Of a stretch of 34,156 bases of DNA, positions 30-33,903 are shown piece by piece (position 1 is the stretch's first letter; the number at the start of each line of letters is the position of its first letter). The position numbers and the translations under genes were made by a program. Source of the stretch: a virus; the IMG/VR virus record IMGVR_UViG_3300045922_000102, positions 1 to 34,156 of that record; one strand, written 5' to 3'. The notes under the pieces are model-generated. The model was not told where the DNA came from, did no database searches, and saw only the letters and a list, made by a program, of their open reading frames with translations.

Positions 30-3000
30 GTGGATGTTGTGATCTACAGCGCTGGAATGCCGTTCAACGGCGAGACCGTGCGCACGCGCTCTTTGGGCGG
101 CAGTGAAAGCGCGGCGTACTACCTTGCGCGTGAACTCGCGCGACGCGGCCATCGCGTCAAGTGCTTCACCTCGCAGCGCGATCCGGCGGAAAGCGCGTGC
201 GATGGCGTCACATACATCTGGCACGGCGACACGTCGCAACAGTCGCCACTGGGCGAGCGGTTCGAGCACTACGCGCTCAACACGCCGCACGACCTGCTCA
301 TCATCCAGCGCCTGCCGTTCGCGTTTCACAAGCAGTACGCGGCGAAGGTCTGCATCTGGCAGTTGCACGATCTCGCCCTGCACCGCAGCGCGCAGCAGGC
401 GCTCGGCGGCACGTGGCAGATCGACGCCGTGACGACGGTCAGCGATTGGCACCGACAACAGGTTCTGAAGGTCTGGGGCCTGAACCCGGACTACGTGAAC
501 GTCGTCCCGAACGGCGTGGACCCGGCGCTGTACGGGCCGCAGACCCATGACGCGCTCAGGATCACGCTGACCGACAACTCGGCCAACGTCGGGCGCACGG
601 ACGAGGATGCGGTGTGCATGCCCTCGGGCAAGTTCCTGCTGCTGTACCAATCGCGTCCGGAGCGCGGCCTCGAGAACGCGCTCGCATTGATGGAGCGCGC
701 GAAGATCACCGGCCTGCCGATCCATCTGATCGTCTGCGGCTACGACAACACGACCGCCACCATGGCGCCGTACTACGCCATGCTGCGCCGCAAGATGACG
801 GGCATGGACAACGTGTCCTACATCGGCTCGCTCTCCAAGCCTCAGCTGGCCGCCCTGCAACAGCGCTGCGACCTGCTGCTGTACCCGACGACGTTCGAGG
901 AAGTGTCGTGCATCACGGCCATGGAGGCGATGCACGCGGGGCTGCCGATGCTCACGTCGGAGTGCGCCGCGCTGCCGGAGACATGCAAAGACTCCGGCAC
1001 GACGCTCATCCCGCTGACGGCGGACGGGCAGGCGGACCTGGACGCTTTCGATCAGTGGCTGCAAACGACATTCGGTCTCGTGCTGCCAGGTCAGTATCCG
1101 GACGAGTTGACGGCGATGCGCGCGAGGCAGCGCGAGGCGGCGCAGTCCCGGACGTGGGAGCGCGCGGTCGATACGCTGCTCAACGTGTACCGCGCAGCGC
1201 TCGCCCGCCGCCGCAACGTCAACGCCATCGTCCGCCACGCCATCGAGCACTCGGACATCGGCTTTGCGGAGTGGGTGGTCAGGCACAACGACAGCGCCGT
1301 CAGCGACACGCTGAAGCGCGAGCTGGCGACCATGTACGCGTTCAAGTCGTCGCAAGACGCTTATGCCGCGCACTACGCCAAGCACCAGACGGCCTACTAC
1401 GACGAGTTCGAGGAGCGCGTCATTGGCGAGGACGTGACGGGCACGGCGCGGTTCCGCGGCACGATGCATCACTTCGCGACGCATGTCGAGAAGTCGAAGG
1501 CCACGTCGCTGCGCGTGCTGGACTACGGTTGCGCGCATGGCCACTACACGATCCCGTTCGCCAAAGCGTTCAGCGTCTGCGAGTTCGTCGGGGTGGACAT
1601 CTCCGACCGCGCCGTGAACGCCGCCCGCAAGTGGGCGGAGCGCGACAAGGTCGAGAATGTGACCTTCGTGCGCGGCGATCAGTCGGTGCTGGCCGGTGGC
1701 GAACTCGGCAAGTTCGATGTCATCGTGGCCGGCGAGGTGGTCGAGCACGTCTGGGATTACAACAAGCTGCTCAACGACCTCAAGGAGCTGCTGCGCCCTG
1801 GCGGCTGCCTGATCGTGACGACGCCGTGCGGACGCTGGGAGCATTCCGGCACGGTCGCTTTCCGCACGGGCCGCGAGCATCTGCACCATTTTGAGCGCGC
1901 GGACATCGAGGACATTTGTCGCGGGCATGAGGTGTCTGTGCTGCACGCGCCTGCGGGCCACGACCGCAGCGGCTTCTCGCTCGGCTCGTGGGTGTGGGCC
2001 GTGTGGCCGACGCAGTCTATTCCGTTCTGGACGGTTGACTACGAGCGCAAGCTGGCCGAGTACGCGCCGCGCCAGACCGTGGCGGCGTGCCTCATCGTCC
2101 GCGACGGCGAGAAGACGCTCCGCCGCTGCGTCGAGTCGTTCGTGGACTGGGTGGACGAGATCATCATCAGCATCGACCCCGCGACCAGCGATCGCACGCT
2201 AGAAATTTGCGCGCACTTGGTCGCCGACTTCCCGCATCGTTCCATCGTGTACGGCATTGGCGAGAAAAGCGCGCAACGCGACGGATTCGAAGAGGCGCGC
2301 AACGAGACCATCGACAAAGCGACCGCCGACTGGATCATCTGGATCGATTCGGACGAGGAGCTGCGCGACGCGCCGCTCTTGCACAAGCTCGCGCGCCCGT
2401 CCATGCACAACGCCTACGGCTTCGCGCAGATTCACTACGCCGTGGACCCGCCGAGCGTGCTCACGACCGACTACCCGTGCCGCCTGTTCCGCAATCACAT
2501 CGGCGTGCGGTTCTACGGCGTCGTGCACGAACATCCCGAGCAGACGCTGGGCAAGGCGATCCCGTATTCCATCGTGCGGCCCGAACTGAAGTTCCTGCAC
2601 CACGGCTACTTCGACGAAGCGACGCGCCGGGCCCGCTACCAGCGCAACCTGCCGCTGCTCATGCGCGACGTGGCCAAGTACCCGAACGAGCGCCCGCTCA
2701 ACAAGTTCCTGTGGCTGCGCGACATCGCCCAAAGCATTCAGTTCGACGCCGAACGCAACGGGCACAGGCCGGAGCATCTTGAGCAGGCATACCAAGGCAT
2801 CAAGCTTATGGAGCAGATTGCCGACATGCCGCAGATCAAGATGATCTCCGACGCGATGCCGTACTACTCTCTGTGCGTCGCCACGACGGGCGGCGGGTTC
2901 GACGCCGAAGTGACACTTCACACCGTGCACGCTGCCGCGCCGGACCTCGCGGCAACGAGCAATCTCAAGGGCCGGTTCCACAGCCGGGACTTTTACCTGA

Positions 3001-3059
3001 AGGTTCTGAACAAGCTCTCACAGGAGACCACCAAGCACTATGAAGATCGACACCTCTAA
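30..3059 (+). CDS. Trifunctional glycosyltransferase (GT4) - SAM methyltransferase - glycosyltransferase (GT2) fusion
   Basis: A 1009-residue protein with three enzyme-like parts. Residues 1 to about 400 resemble a GT4 (GT-B fold) glycosyltransferase, with NGVDP near 160 and the E-x7-E-type stretch EEVSCITAMEAMHAGLP near 290-307. Residues about 440-640 form a class I SAM-dependent methyltransferase; VLDYGCAHGHYT near 496 is the SAM-binding loop. Residues about 685-900 resemble GT2, opening ACLIVRDGEKTLRRC and carrying the DxD-like WIDSDEE near 770, followed by RLFRNH and VHEHP elements seen in GT2 proteins. The likely role is to build and methylate a glycan on a virion protein or a host surface polymer; the acceptor is unknown. 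The start is GTG with a strong Shine-Dalgarno. The 3' end overlaps the next gene by 20 bp, so it belongs to the structural operon. Confidence 0.88.
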   Translation: MDVVIYSAGMPFNGETVRTRSLGGSESAAYYLARELARRGHRVKCFTSQRDPAESACDGVTYIWHGDTSQQSPLGERFEHYALNTPHDLLIIQRLPFAFHKQYAAKVCIWQLHDLALHRSAQQALGGTWQIDAVTTVSDWHRQQVLKVWGLNPDYVNVVPNGVDPALYGPQTHDALRITLTDNSANVGRTDEDAVCMPSGKFLLLYQSRPERGLENALALMERAKITGLPIHLIVCGYDNTTATMAPYYAMLRRKMTGMDNVSYIGSLSKPQLAALQQRCDLLLYPTTFEEVSCITAMEAMHAGLPMLTSECAALPETCKDSGTTLIPLTADGQADLDAFDQWLQTTFGLVLPGQYPDELTAMRARQREAAQSRTWERAVDTLLNVYRAALARRRNVNAIVRHAIEHSDIGFAEWVVRHNDSAVSDTLKRELATMYAFKSSQDAYAAHYAKHQTAYYDEFEERVIGEDVTGTARFRGTMHHFATHVEKSKATSLRVLDYGCAHGHYTIPFAKAFSVCEFVGVDISDRAVNAARKWAERDKVENVTFVRGDQSVLAGGELGKFDVIVAGEVVEHVWDYNKLLNDLKELLRPGGCLIVTTPCGRWEHSGTVAFRTGREHLHHFERADIEDICRGHEVSVLHAPAGHDRSGFSLGSWVWAVWPTQSIPFWTVDYERKLAEYAPRQTVAACLIVRDGEKTLRRCVESFVDWVDEIIISIDPATSDRTLEICAHLVADFPHRSIVYGIGEKSAQRDGFEEARNETIDKATADWIIWIDSDEELRDAPLLHKLARPSMHNAYGFAQIHYAVDPPSVLTTDYPCRLFRNHIGVRFYGVVHEHPEQTLGKAIPYSIVRPELKFLHHGYFDEATRRARYQRNLPLLMRDVAKYPNERPLNKFLWLRDIAQSIQFDAERNGHRPEHLEQAYQGIKLMEQIADMPQIKMISDAMPYYSLCVATTGGGFDAEVTLHTVHAAAPDLAATSNLKGRFHSRDFYLKVLNKLSQETTKHYEDRHL

Positions 3060-22293: not shown

Positions 22294-23019
22294 CTATCGC
22301 ACGGCGCGCGATTCGGCCATGATTGCGCGCCCGATCACTTCGACGACTCGCGGGACGACGGAGTTGCCGAGTCCTCTAAGTCTGTCCACTTGGCGGGGTA
22401 TCCCATGAGCCACTCGACAAACTCCGGGTTCAGCCGTCCACCGGCTACCGGAGCCGTCTGATTCGCCAATATCGCCCGGCACCCCTTGTGCTTTTGCATC
22501 GACGGTGCAAGCTGATTCGCGGTCGCGGTCGGGGTCGCGAGCCACGATCCAGACTCGCCGTCGGATGTGCGTGGCATCGACAGCGCAAGCCGGAACAACA
22601 ATCGCCCGCGCGGCGTAGCCGAGACCTTCCAAGTCAGATAACACTTGGTCGAGGCCCATGCTGATGTGGCCAGCAACGTTTTCAGAAACGACCCAAGTGG
22701 GTCGGACTTCGCCAACAATGCGGCGTACTTCCGGCCAGAGGTAACGGTCATCCTTCGCGCCAAGTCGCTTCCCGGCGTGACTGAATGGCTGGCAAGGGTA
22801 CCCTGCACAGATGAGGTCGATTTTTCCGACTCCATCGCTAACCAGTCTATCTGCCGTGAGTTTTCGAACGTCGTCATAAATGGGCACCTTCGGCCAGTGT
22901 TTTGCCAATACCGCACGAGCGAACGGCTCGATTTCGCAGAACGCGACCGTGGTCATGCCTGCGCGTTCAAGACCAAGCGAGAATCCACCGATGCCGCTGA
23001 ACAGGTCTAGAACCCTCAT
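22294..23019 (-). CDS. C5 cytosine-specific DNA methyltransferase, short form
   Basis: A 241-residue protein with the conserved C5-methyltransferase motifs in order: LDLFSGIGGFSLG (motif I, residues 4-16), GYPCQPFSHAGKR with catalytic Cys76 (IV), SENV at 112-115 (VI), HIRRRVWIV at 151-159 (VIII), and RLRGLGNSVVP with GNS at 218-220 (IX-X). It transfers a methyl group from SAM to cytosine, probably guarding the phage DNA or marking it. Between motifs VIII and X only about 50 residues are left for target recognition, far less than in typical enzymes of over 300 residues. A second reading frame is open through most of the gene (22335-22916). Confidence 0.9.
   Translation of the reverse strand: MRVLDLFSGIGGFSLGLERAGMTTVAFCEIEPFARAVLAKHWPKVPIYDDVRKLTADRLVSDGVGKIDLICAGYPCQPFSHAGKRLGAKDDRYLWPEVRRIVGEVRPTWVVSENVAGHISMGLDQVLSDLEGLGYAARAIVVPACAVDATHIRRRVWIVARDPDRDRESACTVDAKAQGVPGDIGESDGSGSRWTAEPGVCRVAHGIPRQVDRLRGLGNSVVPRVVEVIGRAIMAESRAVR
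22335..22916 (-). CDS. Overprinted ORF inside the C5 methyltransferase gene (+1 frame)
   Basis: A 193-codon frame on the same strand as the methyltransferase but shifted by +1. It contains SGRKYAALLAKSDPLGSFLKTL, TKCYLTWKVSATPRGRLLF, SWLATPTATANQ and LNPEFVEWLMGYPAKWTDLE. From memory these match a recurrent phage hypothetical protein in which TPTAxA, LTWK and LNPxFVEWLMG recur, often encoded beside or over Dcm-type genes. That makes a translated overlap plausible, not certain. The reading frame ends 41 bp before the methyltransferase stop codon. No obvious ribosome binding site was seen at its first ATG. Confidence 0.45.
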   Translation of the reverse strand: MRYWQNTGRRCPFMTTFENSRQIDWLAMESEKSTSSVQGTLASHSVTPGSDLARRMTVTSGRKYAALLAKSDPLGSFLKTLLATSAWASTKCYLTWKVSATPRGRLLFRLALSMPRTSDGESGSWLATPTATANQLAPSMQKHKGCRAILANQTAPVAGGRLNPEFVEWLMGYPAKWTDLEDSATPSSRESSK

Positions 23020-23741: not shown

Positions 23742-24581
23742 TCAGAACACTTCCTCGTCGCTGTACGGCGGCGCAGGCTCCGGCTCCGCCTCGACGACGG
23801 ATTGCAGCGTCTTGGGGCGCTTGGCGGGCGAGGGCGCAGGCGGCGGCTCGACAGCCTCGACCGCCGGCGTCGGCGCATGGTCGAGCAAGGCGGCCTCATC
23901 GTCCTCGCGCAGCCGCTCCACCACGTCGTCATCGCCCAAGATCGCGACCCGCTTGCGCAGCCGGTGCAGGACGGTCTTCTGCTCCATGCGTTCCGGCCAG
24001 TCCTTCCACGGGCCGATAGGGTTGCCCGCCTTGTCCTTGGAGCGAGACGCCGCCGCCGCGCGGGCAAGCTCGGCCATGTTCATCGCCTCGACGTACGTGC
24101 GACCGTCTGCATCCTTGGCGCTGGCATACGCGCCCACGCGCGCGCCGCGATCACCGAACACCTTGGGCCGGTGCATGACATGCTGCCCGTCGTCGTCCGA
24201 CCAAATCTCAATGGTGTCGTGCTCGTACACGCTGGCGGCATACGCCTTGATGCCGGCCTTCGCCATCTCCTTGATGATGCCCTCGGGCATCGGCATGAAC
24301 TGAACCTTCTTGACCCACTGGTCGCCCTGCTTGGTGTTGAACGACACCAGCGCGCCTTCCTTGCCGTCAGGCAGCAACCCGCGCTGTGCAGCCGTCACGC
24401 AGGCGTTGTACAGGCTGGCTCGGTCGCACTCCAAGAGTGCGGAATTGTTCTGCACGGCGGTCAGCGTGACGCGCGTGAATCGATCCAATGACACGTTGGG
24501 CGGCAGCACAGAGCGGAACTTGTCCTGCATGGCAGGATCCGCAATGGCGCGGCAGACAACGGCAAGGGCGTTCTCATTCAT
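23742..24581 (-). CDS. recT: RecT-family single-strand annealing protein
   Basis: A 279-residue protein; the start is ATG 24581, preceded by GGAG on the minus strand and overlapping the small upstream ORF. It begins MNENALAVVCRAIADPAMQDKFRSVLP, then FTRVTLTAVQNNSALLECDRASLYNACVTAAQRGLLPDG, KVQFMPMPEGIIKEMAKAG and ASRSKDKAGNPIGPWKDWPERMEQKTVLHRLRK, in the order seen in RecT/Redbeta-like proteins. It anneals complementary single strands during phage recombination. The C-terminal 60 residues are acidic and Pro-rich, as in many such proteins. It is encoded with the YqaJ nuclease, the usual pair. Confidence 0.9.
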   Translation of the reverse strand: MNENALAVVCRAIADPAMQDKFRSVLPPNVSLDRFTRVTLTAVQNNSALLECDRASLYNACVTAAQRGLLPDGKEGALVSFNTKQGDQWVKKVQFMPMPEGIIKEMAKAGIKAYAASVYEHDTIEIWSDDDGQHVMHRPKVFGDRGARVGAYASAKDADGRTYVEAMNMAELARAAAASRSKDKAGNPIGPWKDWPERMEQKTVLHRLRKRVAILGDDDVVERLREDDEAALLDHAPTPAVEAVEPPPAPSPAKRPKTLQSVVEAEPEPAPPYSDEEVF

Positions 24582-24652
24582 TGGCAGACTCCGGTGTCGT
24601 GGTGGGCGTAATCTCGGGCGCATCGGCTGTTGACGATGTAGACCTTACTCAC
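24578..24652 (-). CDS. Small ORF (24 aa) between yqaJ and recT
   Basis: GTG 24652 is preceded by AAGGAG eight bases upstream within the end of yqaJ, overlaps the yqaJ stop (GTGAGTAA) and ends in an ATGA overlap with recT. It encodes MSKVYIVNSRCARDYAHHDTGVCQ, which contains two Cys and two adjacent His residues. The tight junctions and good ribosome binding site support translation; the function is unknown. It may also couple translation of recT. Confidence 0.5.
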   Translation of the reverse strand: MSKVYIVNSRCARDYAHHDTGVCQ

Positions 24653-25628
24653 GTGACTTCTCCTTTGATGACTTCTTGGCCGTGATACGGACGTTGCGAT
24701 AACCCTTGCGGGTGTACGCTGGCACTTCGGTATCACCGACCATGCCAGCGCTGACATTGAACCCATCGACGATGACGCGCTCGGCATCGCCAATCAGCAT
24801 CAGCAGCTTGGCCTTGAGCGTATCCTTGGTCGCTTCGGCCTCGCGCGCTTGCTTTGCCGCAGCGACGTAACCACGGCACAGCTCCGCAATCTCTTCGTTG
24901 CCGGTGGCGTCCATCACTTTGCCCGGCTCGGCGTAACGGTACAGCTTGGCGACGATGTCGGCGTCTGCCGGCAGGTCCACTGGCGGCATGATGCCGTTGT
25001 CGAGGTCGGCCCAAAACTTCTCGCACTTGGCCACAATCGCCTTGTGCACGGCGTCGTCGCGCTCGCGAACGAACACGCGCAGCTCGTTGCCGCCGATCAG
25101 CGCGCCAATCGCGCCCCAAAACCGACCGATGCACGCTAGCTGGTGCTGCAACTGCAACTCGATGTGCACGGGCGGCTCGCCGTCCGTCCAGTCGTTGCGG
25201 TAGACGAACGTGTCCACGTTCTTGATTTCGAGAATGCCCGCGCCGTGCTTGGCGTACATATCCCGCAGCAACGAGTCCTTTGGCGGTTCCGCGCCATCCG
25301 ACAGCCCGATGATCTCGTAGTCGAACGACGCGCCCGCGCGGATGTGCTGGTAACTGTGAATGGCGTAGCCGCTGATCGCGCGCACCTTGACGCCATACTC
25401 CGATGCAATGCCTTTTGCAATGGCATGCTGCACACGGATGCCCCACCGCATGCGCTCGTTGCCCTCGAACTCCGGGTCCGGGTCCGGCTGCCTCTTGACG
25501 ACCGCCAACTCGAATGCGGTCGAATAGGGCGACAGGCCAAACAGTGCAGCCACTTCCGTGCTGCCGACATGCTTGTGCCGCAGCGCGAGCCATTCCTCGC
25601 GTGTCTTGGGGTATTCCACTTGTGTCAC
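24645..25628 (-). CDS. YqaJ-type viral recombinase / exonuclease
   Basis: A 327-residue protein with EEWLALRHKHVGSTEVAALFGLSPYSTAFEL (residues 11-41), the R-x-x-x-(I/V)G-x-SE-x-A-x-(L/I)-x-G motif of the YqaJ (lambda exonuclease-like, PD-(D/E)XK) family. Catalytic residues are Asp103 in SFDYEI and Glu134/Lys136 in GILEIKN. A later helix with a Lys-rich end (RKGYRNVRITAKKSSKEKSRE) closes it. It digests double-stranded ends to give 3' overhangs for RecT to anneal. It is the first gene of the minus-strand operon and diverges from the helicase gene across a 62-bp control region. Confidence 0.9.
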   Translation of the reverse strand: MTQVEYPKTREEWLALRHKHVGSTEVAALFGLSPYSTAFELAVVKRQPDPDPEFEGNERMRWGIRVQHAIAKGIASEYGVKVRAISGYAIHSYQHIRAGASFDYEIIGLSDGAEPPKDSLLRDMYAKHGAGILEIKNVDTFVYRNDWTDGEPPVHIELQLQHQLACIGRFWGAIGALIGGNELRVFVRERDDAVHKAIVAKCEKFWADLDNGIMPPVDLPADADIVAKLYRYAEPGKVMDATGNEEIAELCRGYVAAAKQAREAEATKDTLKAKLLMLIGDAERVIVDGFNVSAGMVGDTEVPAYTRKGYRNVRITAKKSSKEKSRE

Positions 25629-31931: not shown

Positions 31932-31984
31932 GATTTCTCCTTGGTTGATCCGTCGGTTGTGTCAGATGTTGCTGTCGCTGGTCG

Positions 31985-32426
31985 TGGGTCGATCAATTGT
32001 CGTGGTGCTCTCCCGAAGTGTGTCTCGATCCGCGCATGTGGTTCTCTCTCAGGTCCTGTCTCGATCTTCGAGTTTGGTTCTCTCCATATCCCTGTCTCGA
32101 TCGCATATCATGGTTCTCTCCACAGAAATGTCTCGATCGGCGCCCGTGGTTCTCTCAGGCGTTTTGTCTCGATCCTCGCCAGTGGTTCTCTCTCTTGGTA
32201 TGTCTCGATCGCGCTCAATGGTTCTCTCCGGTCCCGTGTCTCGATCTGACTTCATGGTTCTCTCTGCGCAGCTGTCTCGATCCGACGAGATGGTTCTCTC
32301 GTCACACATGTCTCGATCTCGTACCTTGGTTCTCTCGTCGGCGATGTCTCAATCCGCGTGCTTGGTGCCCTCGATACTCCTGTCTCGATCGATGAATCTG
32401 GTTCTCTCCGCGACCGTGTCTAAATC
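31985..32426. repeat. 36-bp-period array of two constant 10-mers and unique 8-nt spacers
   Basis: Starting at 31985 and then at 32021 plus multiples of 36 up to 32381 (with a half unit at 32417), each unit reads TGTCTCGATC, 8 variable bases, TGGTTCTCTC, 8 variable bases. Ten units (32021-32344 and 32381-32416) keep both 10-mers exactly; the edge units and the one at 32345 carry one or two changes. No two 8-base spacers are the same. The half-period is 18 bp and the two 10-mers share six positions. Stops interrupt two of the forward frames and the minus frame, so it is not clearly a gene. It fills the 534-bp gap between the IS110-like gene and the next minus gene. Confidence 0.95.
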
Positions 32427-32465: not shown

Positions 32466-32885
32466 TCACGTGTAGTCCGCTCCCAGCTCCCGCTCCATCT
32501 CCACCTCGATCAGCGTCCGCTGCTCCACCGTCAGCCCGGATCGATCCAGCAGCCCGTACAGCCGATCCACATCCCCCTGACTCAGCGGGTTCACTCCAGC
32601 CGCGATCAAGTCTTCGCGCGCTCGCTTCTCCGCAGCCGCCAGCGCATCCTCCTTCGCACAGTGCGCCTTCCAGCACCCATCCACGTGCGTCAGCGCCGCG
32701 GTCAGGTCGTCCTGCAACAGCGTCAGCCCGGCATACTCCGCCTGCTTGATCGCCTCAATGATGCACAGCTCCGCGTGCGCCGCTGCCGGCATGTGGTAGT
32801 CGTGCAGCGCCTGGTTCGCCTCCGCCCAGCGCAGCGCCAGCGCCCCCAGTTCGGTTGGCGTCACCTCACGTCGTCCCGATTTCAT
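32466..32885 (-). CDS. Hypothetical helical protein (139 aa)
   Basis: I place the start at ATG 32885 (MKSGRREVTPTELGALALRW) because an earlier start in the same frame would read through the neighbouring gene's coding sequence. The protein is helical throughout: ANQALHDYHMPAAAHAELCIIEAIKQAEYAGLTLLQDDLTAALTHVDGCWKAHC, and an end rich in Glu and Leu (LTVEQRTLIEVEMERELGADYT). No family is recognised. It is the gene nearest the 36-bp array on its upstream side in the minus-strand series and overlaps the previous gene by 20 bp. Confidence 0.65.
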   Translation of the reverse strand: MKSGRREVTPTELGALALRWAEANQALHDYHMPAAAHAELCIIEAIKQAEYAGLTLLQDDLTAALTHVDGCWKAHCAKEDALAAAEKRAREDLIAAGVNPLSQGDVDRLYGLLDRSGLTVEQRTLIEVEMERELGADYT

Positions 32886-33075
32886 AACACTCCTCCCGGC
32901 TCCAGCCGTCCGCGACCATGCGATCCACCAGCGCCATGGCGTCATCGTCGCCGTCCACCCGCACCGCAATCGCCGGCTGCCCCGCCTTGCGCAGCACCAC
33001 CATGTCGCCATATTCCGCCGCGTCGTAGGTCTCCAAAATGCGCGCAAGCTGCGGATCTGGGTCGACAAGACTCAT
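32866..33075 (-). CDS. Hypothetical small acidic protein (69 aa)
   Basis: ATG 33075 overlaps the preceding gene's stop (ATGA). The protein reads MSLVDPDPQLARILETYDAAEYGDMVVLRKAGQPAIAVRVDGDDDAMALVDRMVADGW, an acidic alpha/beta pattern without cysteines except one near the end. No function recognised. It lies between two small genes of the same kind and may be one of a set of early regulators or anti-host proteins, as is common beside a phage control region. That last point is inference. Confidence 0.65.
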   Translation of the reverse strand: MSLVDPDPQLARILETYDAAEYGDMVVLRKAGQPAIAVRVDGDDDAMALVDRMVADGWSREECYEIGTT

Positions 33076-33398: not shown

Positions 33399-33469
33399 GC
33401 ATGACGTGACGCCATCGTCATCATCGACCGCTATGCGGATAACACACCCCCATCATGCGCCCGCAACGC

Positions 33470-33854
33470 GACCGCCACGTGGTCATCTCGGCCATACACG
33501 CGACCACCACGCGGTCATTGAGACCATACGCGCGACCACCACGCGGTCATCTCGGCCATACACGCGACCACTACGCGGTCATTGAGACCATACGCGCGAC
33601 CACCACGCGGTCATTTTCGGGCCCAAAACTCGATTTCGCACCCAGCACAACCGAAACGCGACCACCACGCGGTCATAAACGCGACCACCACGCGGTCATT
33701 TCTGGAAAAACGCGACCGCCAGGCGGTCATCTAGGCCAAAACGCGACCACCAAGCGGTCATTTCCAGCCTCAACGACTCGATCTCGCGCCCACCACCGCC
33801 AAAAACGCGACCACCAGGCGGTCATCTAGGCCAAAACGCGACCACTAGGCGGTC
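33470..33854. repeat. Iteron-like array of eleven near-palindromic GACC...GGTC sites
   Basis: Fifteen-base sites start at 33470, 33502, 33534, 33566, 33598, 33660, 33683, 33714, 33745, 33809 and 33840, with a degenerate copy at 33426. Consensus GACCRCYANGCGGTC, preceded by CGC and followed by AT. The copy at 33714 (GACCGCCAGGCGGTC) is a perfect dyad with seven-base arms. Distances are 32, 32, 32, 32, 62, 23, 31, 31, 64 and 31, close to multiples of three helical turns apart from the 23. The first five alternate two linker sequences, indicating a doubled 64-bp unit. It fits an origin, partition or repressor array. Confidence 0.95.
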
Positions 33855-33903
33855 ATCGGCCCTCTACAACACCCGCCAACGACCCACCCAGCACCAAAAA
33901 TTC

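What the first reader, a model, noticed from the sequence alone, without database searches (positions are those of the whole stretch)
31985..32426. Strict 36-bp array with two invariant 10-mers and unique 8-base spacers
Each unit is TGTCTCGATC-N8-TGGTTCTCTC-N8 and ten units keep both 10-mers perfectly while no spacer repeats. Copying by slippage would duplicate the spacers too, and drift in a gene would change codon third positions of the constants, so the constants appear selected as sites while spacers are free. CRISPR spacers are much longer. The array fills the gap directly upstream of the IS110-like gene. I know of no described phage element with this layout, so it is the best candidate for something new: a phased protein-binding array, an RNA leader, or a recombination substrate.
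Basis: seen in the sequence. Interest (0 to 1): 0.86.

Follow-up and report, generated by a model that had tools for sequence, protein, structure and literature searches.

The report
Phage TIGR-Tas guide-RNA array
The repeated stretch is a phage-borne TIGR-Tas array, a recently described CRISPR-like store of very short paired guide sequences next to its RNA-guided DNA-binding protein; the kind of system is known, but near-identical sister phages carry strongly reshuffled guides, which bears on the open question of how these arrays change.

Summary
In detail: two alternating invariant 10-mers with unique 8-nt spacers, period 36, at 31985-32426. It is not something unknown. On the minus strand the unit reads GATCGAGACA-N8-GAGAGAACCA-N8, directly upstream of and co-directional with the 'IS110-like' gene. 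That gene is a Tas protein: NCBIfam TIGR_Tas_endo 223.8 bits against a cut-off of 100, and its predicted fold matches TasH- and TasR-tigRNA-DNA complexes best. With no HNH or RuvC domain found it is TasA-type. The array is therefore a dual-repeat TIGR array (Faure et al. 2025, PMC12045711), expected to be cut into 36-nt tigRNAs that direct TasA to DNA by pairing two spacers with opposite strands. 70 of 81 related loci carry such arrays, against 1 of 130 unrelated viral loci. Repeat positions 3 and 8 covary as G-C, A-U and U-A, supporting an RNA. Sister phages have 13, 25, 26 and 47 units; most spacers differ, and single spacers recur with new partners far above chance. Natural targets were not found. 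Transcription, processing and DNA binding are inferred from studied relatives, not shown here.

The parts
31967..32426 (-). TIGR array: 26 alternating repeats (13 edge-type, 13 loop-type), 36-bp unit, 8-nt spacers; read on the minus strand
   Evidence: end units degenerate (GATTTAGACA at 32417-32426; GATCGACCCA at 31985-31994; GACAGCAACA at 31967-31976)
32381..32390 (-). edge repeat GATCGAGACA (example; ten perfect copies, starts in the observation check)
   Evidence: called edge by similarity to the GAGCGAGCCA/GAACGAGTCA type of relatives and AAGCGAGCCA of Salicola phage CGphi29
32399..32408 (-). loop repeat GAGAGAACCA (example; ten perfect copies)
   Evidence: A-rich centre as described for loop repeats in PMC12045711; cf. 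AAGACAACCA in CGphi29
32201..32246 (-). example unit with both bounding edge repeats: spacer A CGGGACCG (32229-32236), loop repeat 32219-32228, spacer B TTGAGCGC (32211-32218); this spacer pair also occurs in sister phage L002
31107..31931 (-). tas gene, 274 aa, TasA-type (Nop domain, no HNH or RuvC found)
   Evidence: NCBIfam NF052498 223.8 bits; Pfam Transposase_20; PHROG 4285; fold match to TasH/TasR; model pLDDT 85.6
31937..31942 (-). AAGGAG, likely ribosome-binding site of tas, just after the array
   Evidence: read
32466..33068 (-). 200-aa open frame upstream of the array on the same strand, no family match; array and tas may share its transcript
   Evidence: no terminator-like site on the minus strand between it and tas

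Best explanation
This is a phage-encoded TIGR-Tas system of the TasA (nuclease-less) type with a dual-repeat array. The array is most likely transcribed leftwards (minus strand) ahead of tas and cut within the edge repeats (GATCGAGACA) into 36-nt tigRNAs of the form half edge - spacer A - loop repeat (GAGAGAACCA) - spacer B - half edge. A TasA dimer would bind one tigRNA, edge and loop repeats each contacting one protomer, and go to a double-stranded DNA site at which spacer A pairs with one strand and spacer B with the other. Having no nuclease, it probably acts by occupying and bending DNA, for instance blocking transcription or replication of a competing element. Shown here: the array, repeat covariation, protein family, predicted fold, association and spacer turnover in relatives. 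Inferred from published relatives: transcription, processing, RNA binding, two-strand targeting. Biological role and target are open.
For: NCBIfam equivalog TIGR_Tas_endo at 2.3e-66, 223.8 bits against cut-off 100; all 43 relative records tested also pass it. phmmer and profile hits to TasR 9mty and TasH. Foldseek top 11 hits, E 4e-8 to 2e-4, are all TasH/TasR complexes, ahead of IS110 recombinases at E about 0.015. Array layout as in PMC12045711. Arrays in 70 of 81 tas loci against 1 of 130 control loci, that one a GCAGCAG repeat. In 68 loci 117 of 127 gap-free consensus repeats read GA......C(A/G) on the tas-sense strand, and positions 3/8 are GC 93, AT 15, TA 6; covariation score 0.696 against 0.146 shuffled, 0 of 500. 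Salicola phage CGphi29, the published SpTIGR, has the same 8-nt spacers and similar repeats.
Against: No transcript or tigRNA data. No terminator after the array and no clean truncated edge repeats at its ends, which published arrays typically have. No target found. Identity to characterised Tas proteins is only about 24-29%, so TasA-type biochemistry is extrapolated.
Confidence: 0.93

Rival explanations
1. Same TIGR-TasA system, but guiding TasA to the phage's own genome or the host chromosome (regulation, integration) rather than against competing elements.
For: TasA lacks a nuclease, so self-targeting would not be suicidal; PMC12045711 raises regulation and integrase help as options.
Against: No self-target at 0 mismatches and none above shuffled pairs at 1 mismatch in the window and two sister contigs. 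Most spacers differ between sister phages that are otherwise highly similar, unlike regulatory guides. Host genomes were not searched.
Confidence: 0.3
2. IS110-family transposase with its bridge RNA, or a recombination substrate.
For: Pfam Transposase_20 hit, PHROG name 'transposase'.
Against: No DEDD domain found; IS110 equivalog model 26.2 bits against cut-off 140; IS110 structures match far worse than Tas. A bridge RNA is a single unit, not an array of tens of units.
Confidence: 0.02
3. Phased protein-binding sites (iterons or operators) with neutral spacers.
For: Constant 10-mers at 18-bp steps.
Against: Compensatory changes at positions 3/8 of the repeat, two co-evolving repeat types, consistent strand relative to tas, family membership of the neighbour.
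Confidence: 0.02
4. A repeat-containing coding sequence.
For: Period 36 is a multiple of 3, so long frames stay open.
Against: 34 of 69 relative loci have 7- or 9-nt spacers and L017-L019 have a 35-bp unit, so frame is not kept; spacers are unconstrained between sisters.
Confidence: 0.01

Closest known systems
SpTIGR-TasH of Salicola phage CGphi29
   Same: Dual-repeat array of 36-bp units with 8-nt spacers; repeats AAGCGAGCCA and AAGACAACCA resemble GATCGAGACA and GAGAGAACCA; homologous Nop protein, 29% identity over 68% of the query
   Different: CGphi29 Tas has an N-terminal HNH nuclease (PMC12045711) and its array lies downstream of the gene; here no nuclease and the array is upstream
FpTIGR-TasA (Flavonifractor plautii), described in PMC12045711
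   Same: Nuclease-less solo Nop protein with a dual-repeat array; bound 36-nt RNAs in pull-downs
   Different: 9-nt spacers there, 8-nt here; direct sequence comparison not made
IS110/IS621 RNA-guided transposases
   Same: Related Nop-like RNA-binding domain (Foldseek E about 0.015)
   Different: No DEDD catalytic domain found, no bridge RNA unit, IS110 model not met
CRISPR arrays
   Same: Constant repeats with unique spacers serving as guides (by analogy)
   Different: Two alternating 10-nt repeats, 8-nt paired spacers, no cas genes recognised among the proteins scanned

Membership tests
TIGR-Tas (dual-repeat) | Adjacent Nop-domain Tas protein | tested here: met
   (223.8 bits, cut-off 100)
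TIGR-Tas (dual-repeat) | Two alternating 8-12-nt repeats with short unique spacers | tested here: met
TIGR-Tas (dual-repeat) | Edge and loop repeats share box C/D-like ends; internal pair of the edge repeat covaries | tested here: met
   GA...C(A/G) ends, pair 3/8 GC/AU/UA; the motif differs from the UG...CCA of TasR, as the paper allows
TIGR-Tas (dual-repeat) | Array ends in truncated edge repeats and a terminator | tested here: inconclusive
   Degenerate end repeats seen; no terminator-like site on the minus strand between array and tas
TIGR-Tas (dual-repeat) | Processing into 36-nt tigRNAs bound by Tas | not testable with these tools
   Needs RNA sequencing
TIGR-Tas (dual-repeat) | DNA target with spacer A on one strand, B on the other | tested here: inconclusive
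   No natural target above shuffled guides
TasA subtype | Solo Nop protein, no HNH or RuvC | tested here: met
   Only Transposase_20 above threshold in Pfam; N-terminal part all helical in the model
IS110 transposase | DEDD domain and IS110 family model above cut-off | tested here: not met
CRISPR-Cas | Single longer repeat, spacers of about 30 nt, cas genes | tested here: not met
   (two 10-nt repeats, 8-nt spacers); no cas family among four proteins scanned

The most novel reading that the evidence does not exclude
TIGR arrays are fast-evolving combinatorial guide stores: in one phage population single 8-nt spacers are exchanged between partners by recombination in loop as well as edge repeats, and units are gained and lost, so new dual guides arise without an adaptation machinery. 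Targets would be co-occurring phages; one exact 16/16 match (gap 2) of an L004 guide lies in a recT-like gene of a phage contig from the same metagenome.
Probability: 0.35. Interest if true: 0.78.

Novelty: new member of a known kind. Interest (0 to 1): 0.5.

Why it matters
TIGR-Tas was described in 2025; PMC12045711 lists how arrays emerge and expand, what the natural targets are and what nuclease-less TasA does as open. Sister phages with near-identical tas genes and reshuffled arrays of 13 to 47 units give a natural experiment on array evolution, and about 70 related loci give roughly 960 dual guides for target searches. The repeat rule GA-n-NNNN-n'-C(A/G) gives a simple way to find more arrays that annotation now shows as 'transposase' plus an empty gap.

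Tried and rejected
Self-targets in the window and sister contigs: none above shuffled pairs in four geometries. 962 guides against 2.4 Mb and then 3.8 Mb of viral DNA with arrays masked: no excess at 0 or 1 mismatch for any gap or orientation. Whole-collection scans of four real guides gave 13, 94, 36 and 20 hits. The 94-hit guide CGGGACCG/TTGAGCGC has 64 hits with a gap of exactly 2, many in what I read by eye as an HGTGALNID-like methyltransferase motif, but a same-composition control gave 43 hits, so it is a weak lead only. Shared 8-mers between arrays of different repeat families: 2 seen, 1.4 expected, chance. Rfam: no family. A first covariation count used seeds that required pairing and was circular; it was redone without that condition. 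The input was a hand-made list of distinct repeat types, mostly with AAGCGAGCCA and AAGACAACCA from CGphi29; it counts types, not independent events. The one genome-contig scan found a single relative, in a Solibacteraceae MAG.

Full report
The observation. The array is real and as described: ten perfect copies each of TGTCTCGATC and TGGTTCTCTC alternate every 18 bp, with unique 8-base spacers. Shuffled sequence gives 0.01 expected matches to the two-repeat pattern with up to 3 mismatches; 12 are seen. Degenerate units lie at both ends and one inside (32345-32372).

What it is. Sequence search of solved structures instead gives TasR (9mty) and TasH (21kl) first. A predicted model (pLDDT 85.6) matches eleven TasH/TasR chains best, with IS110 recombinases well behind. 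NCBIfam's TIGR_Tas equivalog is passed at 223.8 bits against a cut-off of 100; the IS110 model is not. The model's name says 'endonuclease', but I found no HNH or RuvC domain and the N-terminal part is helical, so this is TasA-type. Faure et al. 2025 (PMC12045711) describe TIGR arrays as two alternating 8-12-nt repeats with short paired spacers beside such proteins, processed into 36-nt tigRNAs. The window array fits that description.

Orientation. On the minus strand, that of tas, the repeats read GATCGAGACA and GAGAGAACCA. In Salicola phage CGphi29 (the published SpTIGR) they read AAGCGAGCCA and AAGACAACCA on the tas strand, with 8-nt spacers, and a terminator-like stem follows the last CGAG-type repeat (read by eye). 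I therefore call GATCGAGACA the edge and the A-rich GAGAGAACCA the loop repeat; this is by similarity, not by RNA data. The array sits between a 200-aa open frame and tas on the same strand, with no terminator-like site on that strand between array and tas, so a shared transcript is likely but not shown.

Relatives. A viral-contig search with the family alignment found 279 relatives, the best 80 kept. A motif-free detector of 36-bp periodicity finds arrays (score at least 3) in 70 of 81 tas loci and 1 of 130 control loci, the latter a GCAGCAG repeat. Some of the 81 are near-duplicates from related assemblies, and the control loci came from the guide-pattern scans, so they are other viral contigs rather than a random sample. 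In the 68 loci with score at least 4, 117 of 127 gap-free consensus repeats have the form GA......C(A/G), and positions 3 and 8 are G-C 93, A-T 15 and T-A 6 times; most of the rest are repeats caught one base out of register. On a list of 24 distinct repeat types the pair's covariation score is 0.696 against 0.146 for shuffles. The window's edge repeat carries the U-A version. An internal covarying pair in the edge repeat is a feature of published TIGR arrays. Arrays lie downstream of tas in 50 loci, upstream in 8 and on both sides in 10.

Not a coding sequence. A 36-bp period keeps frames open, but 34 of 69 loci contain 7- or 9-nt spacers and L017-L019 have a 35-bp unit.

Spacer turnover. Four contigs have tas genes 99-100% identical to the window's; three of them were compared with the window by blastn. 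Aligned blocks over 1 kb that stay outside the array run at 94-98% identity, those that run into it at 89-91%. Arrays hold 13 (window), 25 (L002), 26 (L003) and 47 (L004) units. Of 91 distinct spacer pairs, two to eight are shared between any two arrays. Six A-spacers and 14 B-spacers occur with more than one partner, against about 0.1-0.2 expected by chance. In 14 of these 20 the partners differ at 5 or more of 8 positions; the other six include partners 1-2 positions apart, which may be point mutation. Shared runs end at an edge repeat in 30 of 37 cases. Recombination in both repeat types is my inference.

Targets. By the published rule, worked out from the cleavage geometry in PMC12045711, a target is spacer A followed within 0-2 bp by the reverse complement of spacer B. 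No self-target was found, and 962 guides showed no excess over shuffled pairs in 2.4 and 3.8 Mb of viral DNA. One exact match (L004 guide GCGACGGC/AGCACGCG, gap 2) lies in a gene that reads like recT, on a contig from the same metagenome as L004 (L332:351; none exact in six shuffles); it was noticed after the fact and could be chance. The guide CGGGACCG/TTGAGCGC has many gap-2 matches in one conserved coding motif, without a decisive excess over a control.

Verdict. A new member of a known kind, TIGR-TasA, in an uncharacterised phage lineage. I put the identification at 0.93. Processing, binding and role are inferred from studied relatives; the role (competition against other elements rather than self or host regulation) I hold only moderately likely. 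The new content is the population-level view of array change and the catalogue of related arrays.

Noticed in passing
window 33466-33857: Second block of 23-32-bp repeats built on palindromic CGCGACCACCACGCGGTCAT-type units, some forming terminator-like stems on the minus strand; also present in sister contigs L002-L005. Upstream of the tas operon; function unknown.
   Followed up: partly
window 24648-25628 and 23742-24623, minus strand: RecE-like exonuclease (PHROG 434) followed by an open frame that reads like RecT (by eye).
   Followed up: partly
window 22297-23019, minus strand: DNA cytosine methyltransferase (PHROG 363; PADLOC type II methyltransferase).
   Followed up: no
window 30-3059, plus strand: 1009-aa open frame that reads by eye like a glycosyltransferase/methyltransferase fusion; not searched.
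   Followed up: no
L023 (Gordonia phage Morrissey) 2560-3830: Palindromic units around a Tas-like gene that look like the stem-loop type of TIGR array; annotated only as hypothetical protein (by eye).
   Followed up: no
L024 (Microcystis phage Mvi-JY20) 3631-3950: Dual-repeat array (CGAAACCCA / TGCGAGCCA, mostly 9-nt spacers) just downstream of a Tas-like gene annotated as hypothetical.
   Followed up: partly
L015, L016: Several separate arrays (four and five) around a single tas gene, whose protein has an insertion near residue 53 in L016.
   Followed up: partly
L014 4870-4940: Minimal array of about two units upstream of tas, missed by the detector (by eye).
   Followed up: no
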